From NCBI GenBank assembly GCA_023356605.1, contig JAKQYE010000003.1, positions 1 to 64,000 on the forward strand: DNA of 64,000 bases, given 5' to 3'. The notes under the pieces are model-generated. The model was not told the DNA's origin, did no database searches, and saw nothing but the letters and a program-made list of their open reading frames with translations. Both the position numbers and the translations under genes were made by a program. Within the stretch, counting starts at the first letter, position 1; each line of letters begins with the position of its first letter. Shown here piece after piece: positions 11,305 to 24,012 of this stretch. The stretch is from Trichodesmium sp. MAG_R02. GTDB taxonomy: Bacteria > Cyanobacteriota > Cyanobacteriia > Cyanobacteriales > Microcoleaceae.

Positions 11305-11670
11305 ATGAATCTTAGAAAACACAAAACTTACCAAATTTTAGTCAGATTTGTCTTTTTATTAGCAGTATATATGATTGCTATGGGGACAATAACTGTTATG
11401 ACCTTTACTAAGGCGACACCAACTTTAGCCGATGAGCATAACAAACAAATCTTGACAGATAAAGATTTTTCTAGCAAAGACTTAACTAAAGATTCATTTA
11501 CTAAATCAATTCTGCGTGAAAGTAACTTTAGTAATGCAAATTTGAGTGGAGTTAGTTTGTTTGGCGCTCATTTAGAAGGAGCTAATTTAGAGGGAGCTAA
11601 TCTTAGTGATTCTGTTTTTTTTAAACCTTCCTTTTTTGTTTTAAGGGTATTGCTGAATCAGAGTGCTTAA
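11305..11670 (+). CDS. exported pentapeptide-repeat protein, probably truncated
   Basis: A 121-residue protein. The N-terminus is a signal peptide-like hydrophobic segment (VRFVFLLAVYMIAMGTITVM) with a likely cleavage near TLADE, pointing to the lumen or periplasm. A(D/N)LXX pentapeptides follow (SNFSNANLSG, ANLEGANLSD). The repeats stop abruptly at SVFFKPSFFVLRVLLNQSA, which is hydrophobic and unlike the normal continuation, so the 3' part has probably been lost through a frameshift or replacement. Family function is unknown; many cyanobacterial members are thylakoid-lumen proteins. Confidence 0.65.
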   Translation: MNLRKHKTYQILVRFVFLLAVYMIAMGTITVMTFTKATPTLADEHNKQILTDKDFSSKDLTKDSFTKSILRESNFSNANLSGVSLFGAHLEGANLEGANLSDSVFFKPSFFVLRVLLNQSA

Positions 11671-13057: not shown

Positions 13058-14572
13058 TTAGTTAGTTGATTCCCCCAAAGGTACTTGAATTAAATCCTGA
13101 ATAGTTGTCATTCTTAACCTCTCTAATTCCTCAATCCATTGTGATTCACTATAAAATTTTTCTTGATATTTTTTAGCCAGTTCTCTATCAGCGGATAAAT
13201 TAGTTTCTTGCCACATATTCAACCAAAGACTTTGACGTTTTTTTGACATAATTAATTCTATAGTTGCTACTGTAGAACGAATTTCTAAAGGGGCTCTAAG
13301 AATATCTTTTTTTGTCTTTTCATCTAAATGGAAAAGATGCTCTAAATTAGCAAGTTTATCTGGAGTTTCCCAACAACTATCTTGTAATCTTGAAATTAAA
13401 TCATCTAATTGATTAAGTTCATTTTCCGAAATATTTTCTACAGAAATAATTTGCTGCCACAAAAATCTATTATGAGATAAGCTAAACTGTAAATCTCTGG
13501 CCTCCATTGCCTCTTTCACATCTTGACGATAGTTTGGACAATGTAAGTAAATACGCAGTAATAAAGACTCAGCTTCAGCCAATAAACTCCCTTCCACAGG
13601 TGGAGATAAAACCACTGGTGAATTATTTTTTTTCCCTTTAGTGAAGTTCCTATTATTTGGCTGATTAGATTTGAATTGTTTCGCTACCAGTAATGGTGGC
13701 GATAAAAATTCATCCTTAGCTAACAGCTTTTTCCAGTTAATAAAAACTTGAGCTAATAAAGTTTCAGAAATTAGTGAGATTCTTCGAGGATCTCCATGAC
13801 TTAAAACTTCGGCACAATATTGAAGATAATAAGTAAGCTGATTATCATTAGTTATCTTCGTTAAAGTTTTAACTATTTCTTGATTTGCTTGACTATACTC
13901 ATCTGCCAGACTCAGATTTTTACTTCCGACTATATTTTGAATTTGCCAATCAATCCATAAAGGAGAATTAACCAATAATTCTTGATATTTTTCAGCAGAA
14001 TGAGTCCTCAAATATTCATCAGCATCTTTCCCATCAGGAATATTTAAAACCCTCAGTTGAACTACCCCACTATAAGCAAGTTTTTCTATTTCTCCAATTA
14101 CTCGTTCAGTAGCTTGAATACCAGCTCGGTCAGCATCAAAATTTAAGATAATTTGTTTAGATTCTGTGTAACGTAAAAGTTGTTTAATTTGAATTGAACT
14201 TAAGGCCGTACCAAGAGAAGCCACAACATTATTAATCCCCGAAGCATGAAGAGCAATAGCATCAAAATATCCCTCTACAACTACAGCTTTATCTTGTTTA
14301 GCAATAGCAGTTTTAGCCTTATCCAAAGCAAATAAAGTTTTACCCTTATCAAATAATTCTGTCTCAGGAGAATTCAAATATTTAGGTTGTTCATCACACA
14401 GAGTTCTGCCACCAAAACCAATAACCCTACCTTGAACATCATTAATAGGAATTATCAAGCGATCGCGAAATCTATCGTAATAACCAGTACCAGATTTTCT
14501 ATTCAAAATCAATCCAGCTTTTTCCACTAATTCCCCAGGAAAACCTTTGTGTTCTACCAGATAACCATAAAT
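13058..14572 (-). CDS. dnaG: dnaG exon 4
   Basis: 504 codons plus stop, beginning IYGYLVEHKGFPGELVEKAG directly after intron 3. It contains the Toprim catalytic centre and the C-terminal DnaB-interacting region. Taken alone it would be misannotated as starting at an internal Met (14527). Confidence 0.92.
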   Translation of the reverse strand: MYGYLVEHKGFPGELVEKAGLILNRKSGTGYYDRFRDRLIIPINDVQGRVIGFGGRTLCDEQPKYLNSPETELFDKGKTLFALDKAKTAIAKQDKAVVVEGYFDAIALHASGINNVVASLGTALSSIQIKQLLRYTESKQIILNFDADRAGIQATERVIGEIEKLAYSGVVQLRVLNIPDGKDADEYLRTHSAEKYQELLVNSPLWIDWQIQNIVGSKNLSLADEYSQANQEIVKTLTKITNDNQLTYYLQYCAEVLSHGDPRRISLISETLLAQVFINWKKLLAKDEFLSPPLLVAKQFKSNQPNNRNFTKGKKNNSPVVLSPPVEGSLLAEAESLLLRIYLHCPNYRQDVKEAMEARDLQFSLSHNRFLWQQIISVENISENELNQLDDLISRLQDSCWETPDKLANLEHLFHLDEKTKKDILRAPLEIRSTVATIELIMSKKRQSLWLNMWQETNLSADRELAKKYQEKFYSESQWIEELERLRMTTIQDLIQVPLGESTN

Positions 14573-17500
14573 GTTAAACTAAGCCTGGTAAGTTACCCTA
14601 CCCGACTCGTCTTCAGAACCGTGCGTGAGACTTTCACCTCACACGGCTCCTCTCTTAAACGTCCCAATTCAAGGGTACATCCTTGCCTTAATATCAAAAT
14701 ATCGTCCACCCACAAATAATCCTCAGGTAAATCCTGTAATTTTGTTTCTGGGTATCTGTTTTCATGTAAGGCAGTTTTAGTATCGTGACAATAACGGTGC
14801 AACAGTTGTTTATTTCTAATTGTGTACCGGCCACCTTCAGACCTTGGTTTTATATGGTCTACTGACCTAAGATCAGTCGGTCTAAAGGTTAGTCCACAAG
14901 ATGCGTATTTATTCTTTTGCCCTTTTAGCAGCGTTGTGACTTCTTTCCTTACCCCCGGATGTTTCCCGATACAGCTGCTCGAGTAGGTCCAGTCATCATC
15001 ATAGGGTAATTGATTACCTTTAACTTTGATGGGCCTTACAGTGGGAACATCTGAGTGTGAGCTTAGTATATATTCACCATCGTTAAGAACCCAATTCCTG
15101 GTCTTTACTGTGGGCAAATACTTTTCCTTCACCCAAGTTGCTGACTTATTTGGATGCCTTCTACGTGGCGTACCCACCCCCAAGAGAGGTGGGTGGAACT
15201 GATTATTGTCCAGTACTCCGGACTTTAACCATTCCTTGACTAACCGCCTGTACGGCGATCGCCCAATCTTTCCTAATATTGCATCATGGTTAATTCGATC
15301 AAAACATTTGGATAGATCGGCGTCAAAGACATATTTGGGTTTTTTACTGATGCTCTTATAGATGGCCCCAATAGCGTCATGGGTTGACCTACCTGGTATA
15401 AAACCATAGCTATTAGGTTCAAAGTGAGCCTCCCATCCTGGTTCCATACCTAACTTAACCAAGGCTTGTAACGCTGTGTCGTACATCATAGAGATGCCTA
15501 ATGGGCCTTTCTCGTCTTTCCCTAATTTTGGTATCCAGACCCCAAGAGTTAGGCTTGCTTTGAGGTGACGTGTTTTTAATATATCTACCAGGTTGAATCG
15601 CTGCATTGGAGATAGACTCTTAATTACATCCACTCCAGCAGTTTTCCTACCTTGGCTATCTTGGGTCACACCCCTAACAGCTAGCAACCTTAAATAATAA
15701 CTTTTGGTCAGAAGTCTTTGGTGTTTACGCATCTTGCGTATTTTGCCACGGCTGGATGCTCTGTAAATTAACTTTTGCAACTTAAATACATTCTTCAGGG
15801 CCCGTTTCCAGTCTATGTCCCTCCATTTAAAGTTAGGATTGACAGTTATCTGGGACGGTATATCCTCTGTATCCCATGCCACGCTAAAAAATGCTTTAGT
15901 ATTTCCTAAACGTCTTTTTAGTGTTTTAGCCTTATTCATCGCTAATTATTACCTTACATTACGTCTAACAGTGGGTACGTCTGCATTTGGTGCTTCTTAC
16001 CCAATCCTACTCCCTCTAAAACCTACGTCTAGGATGCGTAGATTGACCTTGAATGGCTTCCTAAGTTCTCGACCTTATATTCTTAGGTGTCTTAGAGGGG
16101 TTTCCTCGTTTCCTTATACCTTTGTTATGACTAGTTTAGTGGGGTAAAATCTCCCGAAGGGTTCGGCATGGTTGTTGGTAACCCAGAAACTAATAAGGTT
16201 ACCCATAGACCCTTTGATTTTGTCCTACATTCCACGGCTACCTTGGGAATGGTCTGGCTTAACGAGAGTTTAATTACCTTCCTGTTCGTCCACATACCAG
16301 CCTCTGCTAGAAGTCTCACTCCTGAATTGTAGTTAGAGCTTTGACCCCATTTAGACCAGCTTCGGGGATTGATGTTCAATCGCTACCCCGTGGCCTATGC
16401 TGTCAACCCAACAACAGGGCGGATGGAATTTCACCATCAAGGACATAAGAATTATCCACGAGTCGAGGTTCTCCTCATGTATTGACTCGGGACGGCCATT
16501 TATACCCAGTTTTCTGGCTTAGTGGCCAACGAGTCGCACAGTTTCCCAACCATTAGGAGCATAACCCAACTGAAATTTTTGAATAGTCTCTTCTGAAATT
16601 TGACGTGAAATTTGTAAATACTCTAAAGCAATTTTTCCCTGGGGTTGTCTTAAGGCATATTGATAAAAACTATTAGCCATTGCCAAGATTTCATAAAGTT
16701 TTTCTCGCAGAGAAATTTGCCGTTGAAACTCTTGTCTATTTTCAGGTAATTCTGTTTTAATTTGTATTTGATAGCGTCTAGCCAAATCCAACACAACATC
16801 ACTAAAAGAAGACTTACCAATTTCCATTAGAAACTTCAAAGCATCACCAGTTGCGCCGCAACCGAAACAGTAGTACATTTGCTTAGTAGTGTTAAACTAA
16901 GCAAACCCATTTCCGGGTATCCCTTATAGGGTCTGCTCGTCTTCAAAACCGTGCGTGAGACTTTCACCTCACACGGCTCCTCTCCTAAACGTCCCAATTC
17001 AAGGGTACATCCTTAAAATTCCACTCCAGACCTAATGAGTCCTTAATGGTTAACTGCTTTCATATCCTTGGCAGTTTTAAAGTCGTGACAATGTGGGTGC
17101 AACAATAATTTCTCCTTAAACGTGTTGCTACCCCCTTCAGACCTTGGAACGATATGGTCAACCTCGATTAAATCCGTTAGTCTGAAGCTTGGTCCACAAG
17201 ATTCGCATTTACCTTTTTGCTTTTTCAACAGAGTAGTGACTTCCTTCCTTACACCTAAGTGTTTACCCATTCTGTTACTCCAATAAACCCAGTCACCGTC
17301 ATAGGGTGATTTATAGCCTTTTACTTTGACGTGCCGTACAATTTGGACATCTGAGTATCGGCTTAATACATATTCCCCTATATGGTTAAAAACCCAATGT
17401 CTTGCCTCTTTTGTGTTGGAGAAGTACTTTTCTTTGACCCAGATGCCTGACTTGTTTGTGTGCCTTCTATTTGCCCATCGACCTAGTCTTTGCCATAAAA

Positions 17501-20500
17501 GTTCATCAATTTTACTGAATATCTCTTTGCTGACCACAGATGAAAAGTAGTTAGCCCATTCTCTTATGATCGGATTTAGTTTTGCTATTAAAGTCTTAGC
17601 CAAGGCTGATTTGTGAGAATCACATATATCCGCCATCTTCGGGTAATGAGTTTTGATACTCTTAGAAGATGGTTTAATCAGAGTTTTAAATCCTTGTTTA
17701 ATCCTCTTAGCCTGACCTTGCCTAATAGTAAATCCTAGAAAATCGAATCCAGGTCCACTCCCTTCATATCATTCTAGAGTGTGAGCAATTCTAGTCTTTT
17801 CTGGTCGGAGTTCTAATCCTACCTGGTTTAACCATTCCTGTATTAAGGTTTTGGCTTGTAGGACTACTTTGATGTCTTCATGTAGGATGACAAAGTCATT
17901 AGCATAGCGTATTAGATTGAGGCTTCGGGCTTTTTGCACTTGGGCCTTTTCAGGACTTGGAGTGCTCTGTCATAAATCCTTCGGATGCCTAACGGGAGTT
18001 TTTCATCTTTTCCTGGTTTTGGTCTCCAAACTCCACGGGTTAGACTGGCTTTGAAGTGGCTTGTGTTTATTAGCTCGACCAGGTTAAATCCCTGCATTAG
18101 AGGCAAATTACTAATGCCATCTATTCCGGCAGTTTTCTGCCCCTGGTTATCCCGTGTTGCGTCCCTAACAGCTAGTAACCTAGGATAATAACTTTTTCTC
18201 AGAAGTCTTTGGTATTTATGGATCTTGCGGATTTCACCACGGCTGGATGCTTTGTAAATTAACTTTTGCAACTTAAATACATTCTTTAGGGCCCGTTTCC
18301 AGTCTATGTCTCTCCATTTCAAGTTAGGATTGACAGTTATCTGGGACGGTATATCCTCTGTATTCCATGCCACGCTAAAAAATGGTTTAGTATTTCCCAA
18401 ACGTCTTTTTAGTGTTTTAGCCTTATTCATCGCTAATTATTATCTTACATTACGTCTAACAGTGGGTACGTCTGCATTTGGAGCTTCTTACCCAATCCTA
18501 CTCTCCCTAAGACCTGCATCTATAGTGCGCAGATTGGCCTTGAATGGCTTCCTAAGTTCTCGACCTATGTTCTTAGGTGTCTTAGAGAGGTTTCCTCGTT
18601 CCCTTATACCTTTATTACGGCTGATTTAGTAGGGTAAAATCTCCCGAAGGGCTCGGCATAGTTGTTGATAACCTCGTTAGCAAAAGATTATCTATAGACC
18701 CTTTGACTTTCCTCCCACACTTCCATAGCTATCTTTGGAGTGGCCTTTCATGACGAGAGTTTAATTACCTTCCTGTTCGTCCACTTGTCAGCCTTTGCTA
18801 GAAGTCTCACTCATATGATAGTTAGAGCTTTGACCCCGTTTAGGCCAGCTTCGAAGATTGATGTTCAGTCTCTACTCCGTGGCCTATGCTGTCAACCCAA
18901 CAACAGGGCGGATGGAATTTCACCATCAAGGAAATAAGAGTTTTCGCTGGTCGAAGTTATTCACTTCATGTCACGACCAGGAAGGTCTGCTATATATGCT
19001 TTTCAGCATTTTAACTAACCAACGAGTCGCACACTAACAGTAAAGCTAGGAGTTTTTTGTTAAACTAAGCAAACCCATTTCCGGTGGCCCTTTATAGGGT
19101 CTGCTCGTCTTCAAAACCGTGCATGAGGCTTTCACCTCACACGGCTTCTCTCCTAAACGTCCCAATTTAAGGGCACATCCTTAAAATTCTACCTCAGACC
19201 TAATGAGTCCTAATGGTTAACTACTTTCATGTCCCTGGTAGTTTTAGAGTCGTAGCAATGTCGGTACAACAACTGCTTATTTATAAGTTGGTTGCTGCCA
19301 CCTTCAGACCTTGGAATGACATGGTCAACCTCGATTAAATCCGTCGGTCTAAAGTTTAATCCACAAAATTCGCATCTACCCTTCTGCTTTTTCAACAGGG
19401 TTATGACTTCTTTCCTTACACTTGGATGTTTGCTGATTCTACTACTCCAATAAGTCCAGTCACCATCATAGGGCAACTTATTGCCTTTAACTTTGGCATG
19501 CCTTACAATTGGCACGTCCGAGTGTTGGCTTAGTATATATTCGCCATCGTTAAAAATCCAATTTCTGGTGTCCTTTACGTTGGAAAAATATTTTTTCTTA
19601 ACCCATTTCCCTGGCTTATTTGGGTGCCTTCTACTCCCCCAGCGACCTAGTCTTCAACCTAGGAGGTGATCCAATTGACTGAATATTTGCTTACTGACTA
19701 CACTTGAGAAGTAGTTAGCCCATCCTTTTATTACCCGGTTTAACTTGACAATCAAAGCCTGAGTTGAGACTGTTTTGTCAGTGCCACATATATCTGCAAG
19801 GTTGAAGTCTTTGGTATTTACGCATCTTGCTGATTTCGCCACGGCTGGATGCTCTGTAAATTAATTTTTGCAACTTAAATACATTCTTCTCAACCCGCTT
19901 CCAGTCTATGCCCTTCCACTTAAGATTAAGATTAACACTTATCTGGGGCGGTATATCGTCTGTATCCCATGCCACCCTGAAAAAGGGTTTAGGATTGCCT
20001 AAATGTCTTTTTAGTGTTTTAGCCTTATTCATCGCTAATTATCACTTTACATTACGTCTAACAGTGGGTACGTCTGCCTGATGGCTTCTTACCCAATCCT
20101 ACTCTCCCTGAGACCTACGTCCTTTTGCGCAGATTGACCTTGAATGGCTTCCTAAGTTCTCGACCTATATACTTAGGGGTCTTAGAGAGGTTTTCTCGTT
20201 CCCTTATTCCTTTATTACGGCTGATTTAGTAGGGTAAAATCTCCCGGAGGGCTCAATATGGTTGTTAATATAGACACGAAGATATCTATATTCAGTGACC
20301 CTCTGACTTTCGTCCTACATCCCATAGCTACCTTTGGAATGGTTCCCTTTCACGAGAGTTTTATTACCTTCCTGTTCGTCCACTTGTCAGCCTCTGCTAG
20401 AAGTCTCACTCCTGAATTGTAGTTAAAGCTTTGACCCCATTTAGACCAGCTTCGGGGATTGATGTTCATTCGCTACCCCGTGGCCTACGCTGTCAACCCA

Positions 20501-20778
20501 ACAACAAGGCGGGTGGAATTTCACCACCAAGGACATAAGAGTTATCCACAAATCGAGGTTTCCCCCATGTATTGATTTGGGACGGCCAGTTATACCCAGC
20601 TTTGCTGGTTTAGTGACCAACGAGTCGCACCTTCATGGAAAGGGCATAATCCTACATAATCTTTCCCTCGCTTTTTTAATAAAAGATGCTCTGAAATAAC
20701 ATCATAAATATCAGCTCTTTGCTTAACTTCTGCAATAGTATCTTGATGAAAACGGAAATTATTCATAGAATTTCTCAA
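13058..20778 (-). CDS. dnaG: DNA primase, split into four exons by three group II introns
   Basis: DnaG makes RNA primers at the replication fork. Joining 20778-20631, 19058-19033, 16890-16540 and 14572-13058 (minus strand) gives 2040 nt, a continuous 679-residue primase. The N-terminus has the CHC2 zinc finger built from three exons (CPFHE, then EKTPSFTVS, then TTKQMYYCFGCGATGDALKF). The large last exon holds the Toprim core (VVVEGYFDAIALHASG, NFDADRAG, DGKDADEYLR) and the C-terminal helicase-binding part. All three introns begin GTGCGACTCG and end TTTAAC, and each join restores the frame and the expected family sequence. The gene is essential in bacteria, so splicing is presumably efficient; that is inference. 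Confidence 0.9.
14573..16539 (-). mobile_element. group II intron 3 in dnaG (1967 nt)
   Basis: The 5' end is GTGCGACTCGTTGGCC and the 3' end GCTTAGTTTAAC. Domain V, 34 nt, is at 14616-14649 (GAGCCGTGTGAGGTGAAAG). It interrupts dnaG between the Thr codon ending exon 3 and the Ile codon opening exon 4. Confidence 0.9.
14593..15939 (-). pseudogene. intron 3 encoded protein, internally deleted
   Basis: This open frame (448 residues) keeps the reverse-transcriptase N-terminus through RT blocks with VFDADLSKCFDRINHDAIL, then is fused in frame at GVGTP to RRRHPNKSATWVKEKYL, so YADD, thumb and most of maturase X are gone. The HNH part is damaged: the first cysteine is tyrosine (KYASCGLTF). Its last 30 or so residues are translated domain V and VI. 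An uninterrupted frame does not make it functional. Confidence 0.82.
16540..16890 (-). CDS. dnaG: dnaG exon 3
   Basis: 117 codons in frame, from TTKQMYYCFGCG to NGWET. It holds the second half of the zinc finger and the start of the RNA-polymerase-like domain. In unspliced DNA the frame reads through into the intron for a few codons, giving a false C-terminus. Confidence 0.9.
16891..19032 (-). mobile_element. group II intron 2 in dnaG (2142 nt)
   Basis: The 5' end is GTGCGACTCGTTGGTTAG, the 3' end GCTTAGTTTAAC, and domain V lies at 16946-16979 (GAGCCGTGTGAGGTGAAAG). It is the longest of the three. It separates the microexon from exon 3. Confidence 0.9.
17043..18430 (-). pseudogene. intron 2 encoded protein remnant (YAND, stop codon)
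   Basis: The N-terminal RT region (from MNKAKTLKRRLGNTKPFFSV) runs to IYDRALQVL, then a deletion and frameshift remove much of the palm. The catalytic motif survives as YAND (17895-17906) instead of YADD. A TGA follows shortly (near 17768), then an intact-looking maturase X segment (GFDFLGFTIRQGQ, REWANYFSSVVSKEIF) and HNH (CESCGPSF, IEVDHIVPRSEGG, HCHDFKT). Confidence 0.82.
19033..19058 (-). CDS. dnaG: dnaG exon 2 (26-nt microexon)
   Basis: With the single G carried over from exon 1 it reads GAA AAA ACT CCT AGC TTT ACT GTT AGT, giving EKTPSFTVS, exactly the expected zinc-finger linker of DnaG. It is bounded by the TTTAAC end of intron 1 and the GTGCGAC start of intron 2. Confidence 0.88.
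19059..20630 (-). mobile_element. group II intron 1 in dnaG (1572 nt)
   Basis: The 5' end is GTGCGACTCGTTGGTC and the 3' end GCTTAGTTTAAC. Domain V is at 19114-19147 (AGCCGTGTGAGGTGAAAG with complementary CACGG arm). GTGCG...AC ends fit group II consensus. Domain IV carries only a severely deleted intron-encoded protein. The first several hundred bases are close to those of introns 2 and 3. Confidence 0.88.
19210..20032 (-). pseudogene. intron 1 encoded protein remnant (RT lost, HNH kept)
   Basis: The N-terminus MNKAKTLKRHLGNPKPFF runs about 75 residues to KYQRLQ, then jumps out of frame to the end of the maturase X region (LADICGTDK...VIKGWANYFSSVVSKQIF), deleting the whole reverse-transcriptase palm. 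The HNH endonuclease segment is intact in appearance: CEFCGLNF, IEVDHVIPRSEGG, HCYDSKT. It cannot act as a reverse transcriptase. Confidence 0.8.
20631..20778 (-). CDS. dnaG: dnaG exon 1
   Basis: It encodes 49 residues plus the first base of codon 50 and ends in CPFHE, inside the zinc-binding finger. Two ATGs (20778 and 20766) are possible starts; the second, MNNFRFHQDTIAEVKQ, is closer to other primases. Confidence 0.88.
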
Positions 20779-22631: not shown

Positions 22632-23321
22632 GTGTTCAAACGCATAAGGCAGGACTTAAAAAATGACCTAATCGCTGGTCTATTGGTAGTAATACCATTA
22701 GCTACCACAATTTGGCTAACCATAACTATTGCTCGGTGGGTAATTGATTTTCTAACCAAGATTCCAAAGCAAATTAATCCCTTTGATGGTTTACATCCTA
22801 TATTGGTGGGTCTACTAAACTTCCTAGTAGGACTAGCAGTACCATTGCTAAGTATCCTCATCATAGGGCTGATGGCCAGAAATATTGCCGGAAAATGGCT
22901 ATTAGATCTAGGTGAGAAAATATTACAAGCAATTCCATTTGCTGGCTCAGTTTATGGCACTCTAAAGCAAATATTAGAAACTCTGCTTAAGGATTCTAAC
23001 GAGAAATTTCGCCGTGTGGTACTGGTAGAATACCCACGTCGAGGAGTTTGGACTATAGCTTTTGTTACTGGCACTATAGGTAACGAAATTAAATCTCATC
23101 TAGAAGATTCAATGTTAAGTCTATTCATTCCCACAACTCCAAATCCCACATCAGGTTGGTACGCAATAGTACCAGAAAAAGATGTGATTAATGTTTCTTT
23201 GTCAGTCGAAGATGCTTTTAAAGTTTTAATATCTGGTGGAATAGTAAATCCCAGTGGATCAACAGAAATTAGTCAAGACAAAATATTCAATAATCAACTC
23301 AAACCAGTAAGTCTCGATTAA
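22632..23321 (+). CDS. DUF502 family membrane protein
   Basis: A 229-residue protein starting at GTG. Two hydrophobic helices (LIAGLLVVIPLATTIWLTITIARWVIDFL and LNFLVGLAVPLLSILIIGLMAR, described by their ends) anchor it in the membrane. The conserved GSVYGTLKQ(I)LET and VVLVEYPRRGVWTIAFVTG motifs place it in DUF502, whose function is not established. In cyanobacteria this gene is commonly just before nusB, as here (67 bases). Confidence 0.88.
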   Translation: MFKRIRQDLKNDLIAGLLVVIPLATTIWLTITIARWVIDFLTKIPKQINPFDGLHPILVGLLNFLVGLAVPLLSILIIGLMARNIAGKWLLDLGEKILQAIPFAGSVYGTLKQILETLLKDSNEKFRRVVLVEYPRRGVWTIAFVTGTIGNEIKSHLEDSMLSLFIPTTPNPTSGWYAIVPEKDVINVSLSVEDAFKVLISGGIVNPSGSTEISQDKIFNNQLKPVSLD

Positions 23322-23388
23322 AGAATAATATCAAAAACTTTACACATCTAGGATTTAATAGATTAGACTCTAATATTATATACACGTT

Positions 23389-24012
23389 ATGAAAAAAGCT
23401 CCCCGCTCTACAGCTCGTGAACTAGCTCTCCTTGGCTTAAGTCAATTAACAACAAATTCAGGGAGTTTAGAAAAAAAGCAACTTCAAGAAGTTGTATTAG
23501 CAGCAGTTCGCACTTTAAGAACGGAGGCCCAAGATCTTCTGGAAACGGCAGCAGCAGAGCTACAGAGAGGGAGCGATCGCCTTCTGAGTAGTCAGATAAA
23601 CACTACTGATATTGAAAGTGCCAGAGCAATGCTCTATGAAGCTATAGAATTAAGCCAAACAGCAATTAATCGTATTGGTAGTGCTGTTGAATTACCAGAA
23701 ATCCTTCAACTCACTAATCAATTAGAAGTTCGCAGCTATACTATGGAAATTCTGACAAAAGTAAACGGTAATAAGAAAGAAATTGATAAATTACTGAGGG
23801 AATCAATAATAGATTGGCAAATAGAACGTTTACCTAGAATCGATCTAGATATACTCAGAATTGCAGTAGCAGAAATAATGTTTATTGGAATTCAAAAACC
23901 AGTGGCCATTAGTGAAGCAGTAGAACTAGCTAAGCGTTATAGTGGTGAAGATGGGCATAAGTTTATCAATGGAGTATTACGAAGAGTCCTCAACAAAATT
24001 AATGTAATTTGA
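23389..24012 (+). CDS. nusB: transcription antitermination protein NusB
   Basis: This 207-residue NusB binds boxA RNA with ribosomal protein S10 and supports antitermination of rRNA operons. The N-terminal STARELALLGLSQL and the C-terminal LPRIDLDILRIAVAEIMF and GEDGHKFINGVLRRVL are diagnostic. Cyanobacterial NusB carries extra length in the middle (here helices around residues 35-110), which accounts for 207 instead of about 140 residues. The neighbour ftsY follows in many cyanobacteria; here 2 kb of transposon debris has come between. Confidence 0.95.
   Translation: MKKAPRSTARELALLGLSQLTTNSGSLEKKQLQEVVLAAVRTLRTEAQDLLETAAAELQRGSDRLLSSQINTTDIESARAMLYEAIELSQTAINRIGSAVELPEILQLTNQLEVRSYTMEILTKVNGNKKEIDKLLRESIIDWQIERLPRIDLDILRIAVAEIMFIGIQKPVAISEAVELAKRYSGEDGHKFINGVLRRVLNKINVI

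What the first reader, a model, noticed from the sequence alone, without database searches (positions are those of the whole stretch)
13058..20778. Primase gene dnaG carries three separate group II introns
An essential replication gene is broken into four exons by three related group II introns (1572, 2142 and 1967 nt). Each has GTGCGAC...TTTAAC ends and a domain V hairpin. Joining the exons restores an unbroken 679-residue primase with the zinc finger and Toprim motifs in place. Group II introns in bacteria usually avoid conserved genes; three in one essential gene would make replication depend on repeated RNA splicing.
Basis: partly seen in the sequence, partly recalled or inferred. Interest (0 to 1): 0.88.

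Follow-up and report, generated by a model that had tools for sequence, protein, structure and literature searches.

The report
Primase gene split by three introns
In a Trichodesmium ocean cyanobacterium the only primase gene found, which DNA replication needs, is cut into four pieces by three group II introns that have lost their own helper protein, so the cell probably depends on splicing helped by proteins made elsewhere; related bacteria do this in other essential genes, so the case is a new example rather than a new phenomenon.

Summary
On the minus strand, exons 20766-20631, 19058-19033, 16890-16540 and 14572-13058 join into an unbroken 675-aa DnaG (679 aa only with a TTG start). They are separated by group II introns of 1572, 2142 and 1967 nt. 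All three introns score above Rfam's group II threshold, fold a domain V and a domain VI with a bulged A, and carry an EBS1 that pairs with their own 5' exon. No other dnaG is found in the genome (92% complete). Intact relatives, T. erythraeum included, share the joined sequence, and dN/dS matches theirs. Introns 1 and 2 split the zinc ribbon, so unspliced pieces cannot replace the enzyme.

The genome is a Trichodesmium with about 31 intron hits; dnaN, ruvA, prfB, thyX and a cysK-type gene are also interrupted, and two lysozyme-type genes carry three introns each. Trichodesmium is known for this, so dnaG is a new host of a known kind. None of the three introns encodes an intact maturase, so splicing in trans is likely. 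The genome's long maturases of this family have all lost the second Asp of the YADD motif, which suggests splicing-only proteins. A seemingly trans-split dnaG in an Okeania MAG is probably an assembly error.

The parts
20631..20766 (-). dnaG exon 1 (136 nt, aa 1-45 plus first base of codon 46); carries zinc-ribbon residues C41 and H44
19059..20630 (-). group II intron 1 (1572 nt), IEP reduced to remnants; EBS1 CTTCGT pairs with IBS1 ATGAAG, EBS2 AAGGG with CCCTT
19778..20032 (-). remnant of the IEP N terminus (RVT_N) in intron 1
19210..19515 (-). remnant of the IEP C terminus (HNH) in intron 1
19033..19058 (-). dnaG exon 2, a 26-nt exon; contains both IBS1 and the IBS2 region of intron 2
16891..19032 (-). 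group II intron 2 (2142 nt), IEP broken into open pieces; EBS1 GCTAAC pairs with IBS1 GTTAGT
17912..18430 (-). IEP N-terminal piece (RVT_N) in intron 2
17043..17636 (-). IEP C-terminal piece (GIIM maturase domain + HNH) in intron 2
16540..16890 (-). dnaG exon 3 (351 nt); carries the second zinc-ribbon half, CFGC
14573..16539 (-). group II intron 3 (1967 nt); EBS1 AGTTTC pairs with IBS1 GAAACT
14593..15939 (-). 448-aa ORF in intron 3: RVT_N + first half of RT fused to HNH; a deletion of about 190-200 aa removed the YADD region and the maturase domain
13058..14572 (-). dnaG exon 4 (1515 nt with stop): most of DNAG_N, Toprim and DnaB-binding domains
14612..14652 (-). domain V of intron 3
16942..16982 (-). 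domain V of intron 2
19110..19150 (-). domain V of intron 1
22632..24012 (+). conserved upstream neighbours (membrane protein gene, nusB-like gene) also found upstream of dnaG exon 1 in Okeania L163; shows this is the ancestral dnaG locus

Best explanation
This is the cell's working dnaG, interrupted by three members of a chloroplast-like (CL/IIB-type) group II intron family that has spread through the genome. [quoted passage not shown] Inferred: one long transcript is spliced three times. Each 5' splice site is chosen by EBS1/EBS2-IBS1/IBS2 pairing, and the bulged A of domain VI attacks it to form a lariat. Splicing is helped in trans by maturases of the same family encoded in introns of other genes (C15, C212, C148). 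These maturases have lost the second Asp of the RT motif YADD, so they are probably splicing-only proteins. The introns are then immobile and fixed, and replication depends on splicing.
For: Joined 675-aa frame with full Pfam domains. Rfam hits and domain V/VI folds. Cognate EBS1-IBS1 pairing, 13 of 15 strict, p = 5e-5. Only these dnaG pieces in the genome. Intact orthologues at 83-90% identity collinear across the junctions. dN/dS 0.15-0.23 for the window gene against relatives, the same as 0.14-0.23 among intact relatives. Introns 1 and 2 split the zinc ribbon. Same host pattern genome-wide. Long open maturases with RT, GIIM and in part HNH domains elsewhere in the genome. Altered YADD in 9 of 20 planktonic Trichodesmium copies and 0 of 32 in Okeania-side genomes. 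Precedent: in vivo splicing and trans-acting maturase in T. erythraeum (PMC4649490).
Against: No RNA evidence. The assembly has 537 contigs and is 92% complete, so a second dnaG or an intact RT-competent IEP could be missing. dN/dS averages over the whole lineage and does not date the insertions. The maturases' dN/dS does not separate open copies from broken ones, so their function rests on the open frames alone. EBS2-IBS2 pairing of intron 2 is short.
Confidence: 0.85

Rival explanations
1. The interrupted dnaG is a dying pseudogene, and the working primase is a second copy missing from the draft assembly.
For: The assembly is 92% complete in 537 contigs; Trichodesmium is reported to have many pseudogenes (PMC4649490).
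Against: All four exons are free of stops and frameshifts, and dN/dS equals that of intact relatives. The locus keeps the ancestral upstream neighbours. Intact relatives in the genus show one full-length dnaG. Cognate exon-intron pairing is kept.
Confidence: 0.07
2. The introns splice on their own or with another host factor, and the RT-altered maturases are not involved.
For: Group II RNAs can self-splice; PMC4649490 names autocatalysis as an alternative for ORF-less introns. Other maturase families (C163 with YADD, C494, C312) are also present.
Against: The C15, C212 and C148 proteins are 57-77% identical to the IEP remnants in the dnaG introns; the other families outside C145 reach at most 59% over short stretches and mostly under 47%. 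A trans-acting IEP assisting several similar introns has been shown for T. erythraeum (Meng 2005, cited in PMC4649490).
Confidence: 0.25
3. The arrangement is an assembly artefact made by joining intron repeats wrongly.
For: A repeated intron family in a draft genome; a nearby case in Okeania SIO2B3 does look misassembled.
Against: The three introns are distinct sequences, about 85% alike in their 5' parts and less in the rest, too different to be confused. Each matches its own exon by EBS1. Exon order and neighbours follow the ancestral gene.
Confidence: 0.03

Closest known systems
Trichodesmium erythraeum ribonucleotide reductase gene with three group II introns and four inteins (Liu et al. 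2003, cited in PMC4649490)
   Same: Same genus, three group II introns in one essential DNA-metabolism gene.
   Different: Different host gene; dnaG here has no intein. Known to me only through the citation.
Group II introns of T. [quoted passage not shown]
   Same: Same genus; introns in protein-coding genes; splicing helped by IEPs acting in trans.
   Different: The T. erythraeum dnaG in hand (G056) is uninterrupted.
Site-1 dnaG introns of Okeania sp. SIO3B5 and SIO2B3 (L165, L163)
   Same: Exactly the same insertion site and the same EBS1 (CTTCGT) as window intron 1.
   Different: They form a separate, well-supported intron clade (support 1.0), keep YADD and a long open IEP, and are the only intron in their dnaG. 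This suggests two independent invasions of one site.
Organellar splicing-only group II introns in housekeeping genes (PMC4424553)
   Same: Essential host genes, degraded IEPs, reliance on proteins acting in trans, mobility apparently lost.
   Different: Here the trans factors are encoded in introns of the same bacterial genome, not in a nucleus.

Membership tests
Group II intron | 5' GUGYG and 3' AY boundaries | tested here: met
   All three begin GTGCGACTCGTT and end GTTTAAC.
Group II intron | Domain V catalytic hairpin | tested here: met
   RF00029 55.8-59.8 bits (threshold 40) and RF04357 57.3-61 bits (threshold 53).
Group II intron | Domain VI with a bulged branch-point A near the 3' end | tested here: met
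   In the folds of all three, the A of GCUUAGUUUAAC is unpaired within the closing helix, 8th base from the 3' end.
Group II intron | EBS-IBS pairing specific to the host exon | tested here: met
   EBS1: all three pair over 6 of 6 positions with their own exon; genome-wide permutation p = 5e-5. EBS2 weaker for intron 2.
Group II intron | Intron-encoded RT/maturase | tested here: not met
   Only truncated or broken pieces in all three. The feature is optional for the family; many Trichodesmium introns lack it.
Group II intron | Excision as lariat with exact exon ligation in vivo | not testable with these tools
   Needs RNA.
Essential gene with several group II introns, as in Trichodesmium | Host gene essential, single copy and kept functional when joined | tested here: met
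   single copy within a 92% complete assembly.
Natural trans-splicing group II intron (considered for Okeania SIO2B3 dnaG) | Intron halves truly encoded at distant loci | tested here: inconclusive
   Halves lie on two contigs, but both breaks fall at one point inside the same dispersed element, with an N there; probably a misjoin.

The most novel reading that the evidence does not exclude
Planktonic Trichodesmium has domesticated its group II introns: a few full-length maturases with a disabled reverse transcriptase (YADN, YADK, YADE and others) act in trans as general splicing factors for introns fixed in primase, sliding clamp, RuvA, release factor 2 and other genes. This would be a bacterial parallel of organellar maturases on the way to a spliceosome-like division of labour.
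Probability: 0.4. Interest if true: 0.72.

Novelty: new member of a known kind. Interest (0 to 1): 0.52.

Why it matters
A primase, with its zinc ribbon cut in two places and a 26-nt exon between two introns, is a strict test of how accurate bacterial group II splicing must be. If the RT-altered maturases do the splicing, planktonic Trichodesmium offers a tractable bacterial case of introns that have lost mobility and become dependent on shared trans factors, a step proposed for organelles and for the origin of the spliceosome.

Tried and rejected
Second dnaG in the genome: none found. A natural trans-splicing dnaG in Okeania SIO2B3: exon 1 plus the 5' intron with its IEP on C195 and the intron 3' end plus the other exons on C112 looked like the first bacterial bipartite intron (PMC4424553 states none had been reported by 2015). 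Both breaks turned out to lie at the same point inside one dispersed element of roughly 300 bp whose copies elsewhere join the two sides directly, with an N at that point in C112, so I take it as a cis intron with an insert in domain IV and a misjoin. Shared descent of window intron 1 with the Okeania site-1 introns: not supported by the tree. dN/dS as proof of maturase function: not informative, since broken copies give the same ratios. MAG_R04 (G060) may also have introns in dnaG, because exons 1-3 are missing and the contig stops about 41 nt past site 3, but this is inconclusive. Papers naming dnaG as a group II intron host: the search on these words gave none on this subject.

Full report
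Observation. On the minus strand of the window the dnaG gene lies in four exons, 20766-20631, 19058-19033, 16890-16540 and 14572-13058. Five intact relatives begin with the same MNNFRFHQDT. The joined protein has the DnaG zinc ribbon, catalytic core, Toprim and DnaB-binding domains. Without splicing, exon 1 reads into intron 1 and stops after 58 residues. Zinc-ribbon residues C41 and H44 are in exon 1 and the CFGC pair is in exon 3, so no unspliced piece can carry a whole zinc ribbon.

The introns. All three reach Rfam's group II threshold, share their ends, and fold a domain V and a domain VI with a bulged A near the 3' end. The EBS1 loop of each pairs over six positions with its own IBS1: ATGAAG/CTTCGT, GTTAGT/GCTAAC, GAAACT/AGTTTC. 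Over 15 introns of this genome the own exon scores 12.4 on average and foreign exons 0.9; the own exon is strictly best in 13 and the permutation p is 5e-5. EBS2 pairing is also above chance but short for intron 2. Intron 1 lies in codon phase 1; introns 2 and 3 lie between codons. The 26-nt exon 2 contains both IBS1 and the IBS2 region of intron 2, so intron 2's 5' site does not need intron 1 to be removed first (inference from coordinates).

Is the gene alive? No other dnaG piece is found in the genome, which is 6.77 Mb in 537 contigs and 92% complete. Of 62 genomes of the family, most show a single full-length dnaG. dN/dS of the joined gene against five relatives is 0.15-0.23, and among intact relatives 0.14-0.23. 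The upstream neighbours at 22632-24012 are the same as upstream of dnaG exon 1 in Okeania.

Organism and genome-wide pattern. All relatives in the genus whose dnaG is whole lack introns in it. The genome has 31 domain V hits, 27 of them above threshold. Joining exons across further introns gives dnaN (2 introns), ruvA, prfB, a PLP-enzyme gene of cysK type, thyX with an intein, and two phage-lysozyme-type genes with three introns each. This is the known Trichodesmium situation: PMC4649490 reports 17 group II introns spliced in vivo in T. erythraeum, ten of them without an ORF, and cites three group II introns plus four inteins in one ribonucleotide reductase gene. [quoted passage not shown]

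History of the insertions. In a tree of the first 830 nt, dnaG introns 2 and 3 are sisters (0.98), while intron 1 groups with other Trichodesmium introns. Two Okeania genomes have an intron at exactly site 1 with the same EBS1, but these form a separate Okeania clade (1.0), so site 1 was probably invaded twice.

How splicing is likely helped. Intron 1 keeps only IEP ends, intron 2 has a broken IEP, and intron 3 has a 448-aa ORF that lost about 190-200 residues with YADD and the maturase domain. Elsewhere the genome has long open IEPs of the same family, in introns of the two lysozyme-type genes (C15, C212) and on C148. All three have an altered YADD: YADN, YADK, YADE. Over related genomes, the second Asp is changed in 9 of 20 family members in planktonic Trichodesmium (G000, G056, G060, G061) and in 0 of 32 in the Okeania-side genomes (G041-G045, G057-G059); Fisher p = 4.6e-5. 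Six of the nine altered copies have no stop over 576-618 codons. The copies are not all independent, and dN/dS does not separate open from broken copies, so this is a lead, not proof. Together with the T. erythraeum precedent for an IEP acting on several introns in trans (Meng 2005, cited in PMC4649490), it makes splicing-only maturases the likeliest helpers.

Side trail. In Okeania SIO2B3, dnaG exon 1 with the 5' intron and its IEP lies on one contig and the rest on another. This looked like a natural trans-splicing intron, which PMC4424553 says had not been reported in bacteria. Both breaks, however, fall at the same point of one dispersed element that is whole in other genomes, and the second contig has an N exactly there. 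A misjoin is the better reading.

Verdict. The finding is real and well described; its interpretation overstates the novelty. It is a new host gene for a known kind of arrangement, with an interesting lead on RT-altered maturases.

Noticed in passing
L163:6807-9288 and L164:8755-10972 (Okeania sp. SIO2B3): dnaG exon 1 plus the intron 5' part with a 586-aa IEP and the intron 3' end plus the remaining exons are on two large contigs. Both breaks lie inside one dispersed element with inverted AATAATGAAT-type ends; probably a misassembly, but a true trans-split intron is not excluded.
   Followed up: yes
L143:4631-6436, L144:6931-8598, L145 (C148:3783-5195): Long open group II maturases whose RT motif YADD is changed to YADN, YADK and YADE; similar changes in other planktonic Trichodesmium genomes and none in Okeania-side genomes.
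   Followed up: partly
L143:1647-8275 and L144:3401-9188: Two phage-lysozyme-type genes in the same genome, each interrupted by three group II introns, one with a 27-nt exon between introns.
   Followed up: partly
L147:7934-9764: thyX gene with both a group II intron and an intein, as published for a bacterial thymidylate synthase by title in the reference list of PMC4649490.
   Followed up: partly
L066 / L124 (Okeania sp. SIO2C9): The C-terminal part of dnaG is present more than once in tandem downstream of a dnaG truncated near residue 490.
   Followed up: no
window 11305-11670: The pentapeptide-repeat gene next to dnaG is 121 aa here against 175 aa in Okeania L164, with an unrelated C-terminal end; it may be truncated.
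   Followed up: no
L037 / L166 (Trichodesmium MAG_R04): The dnaG contig stops about 41 nt downstream of intron site 3 and exons 1-3 are not found in the assembly; introns there are possible.
   Followed up: partly
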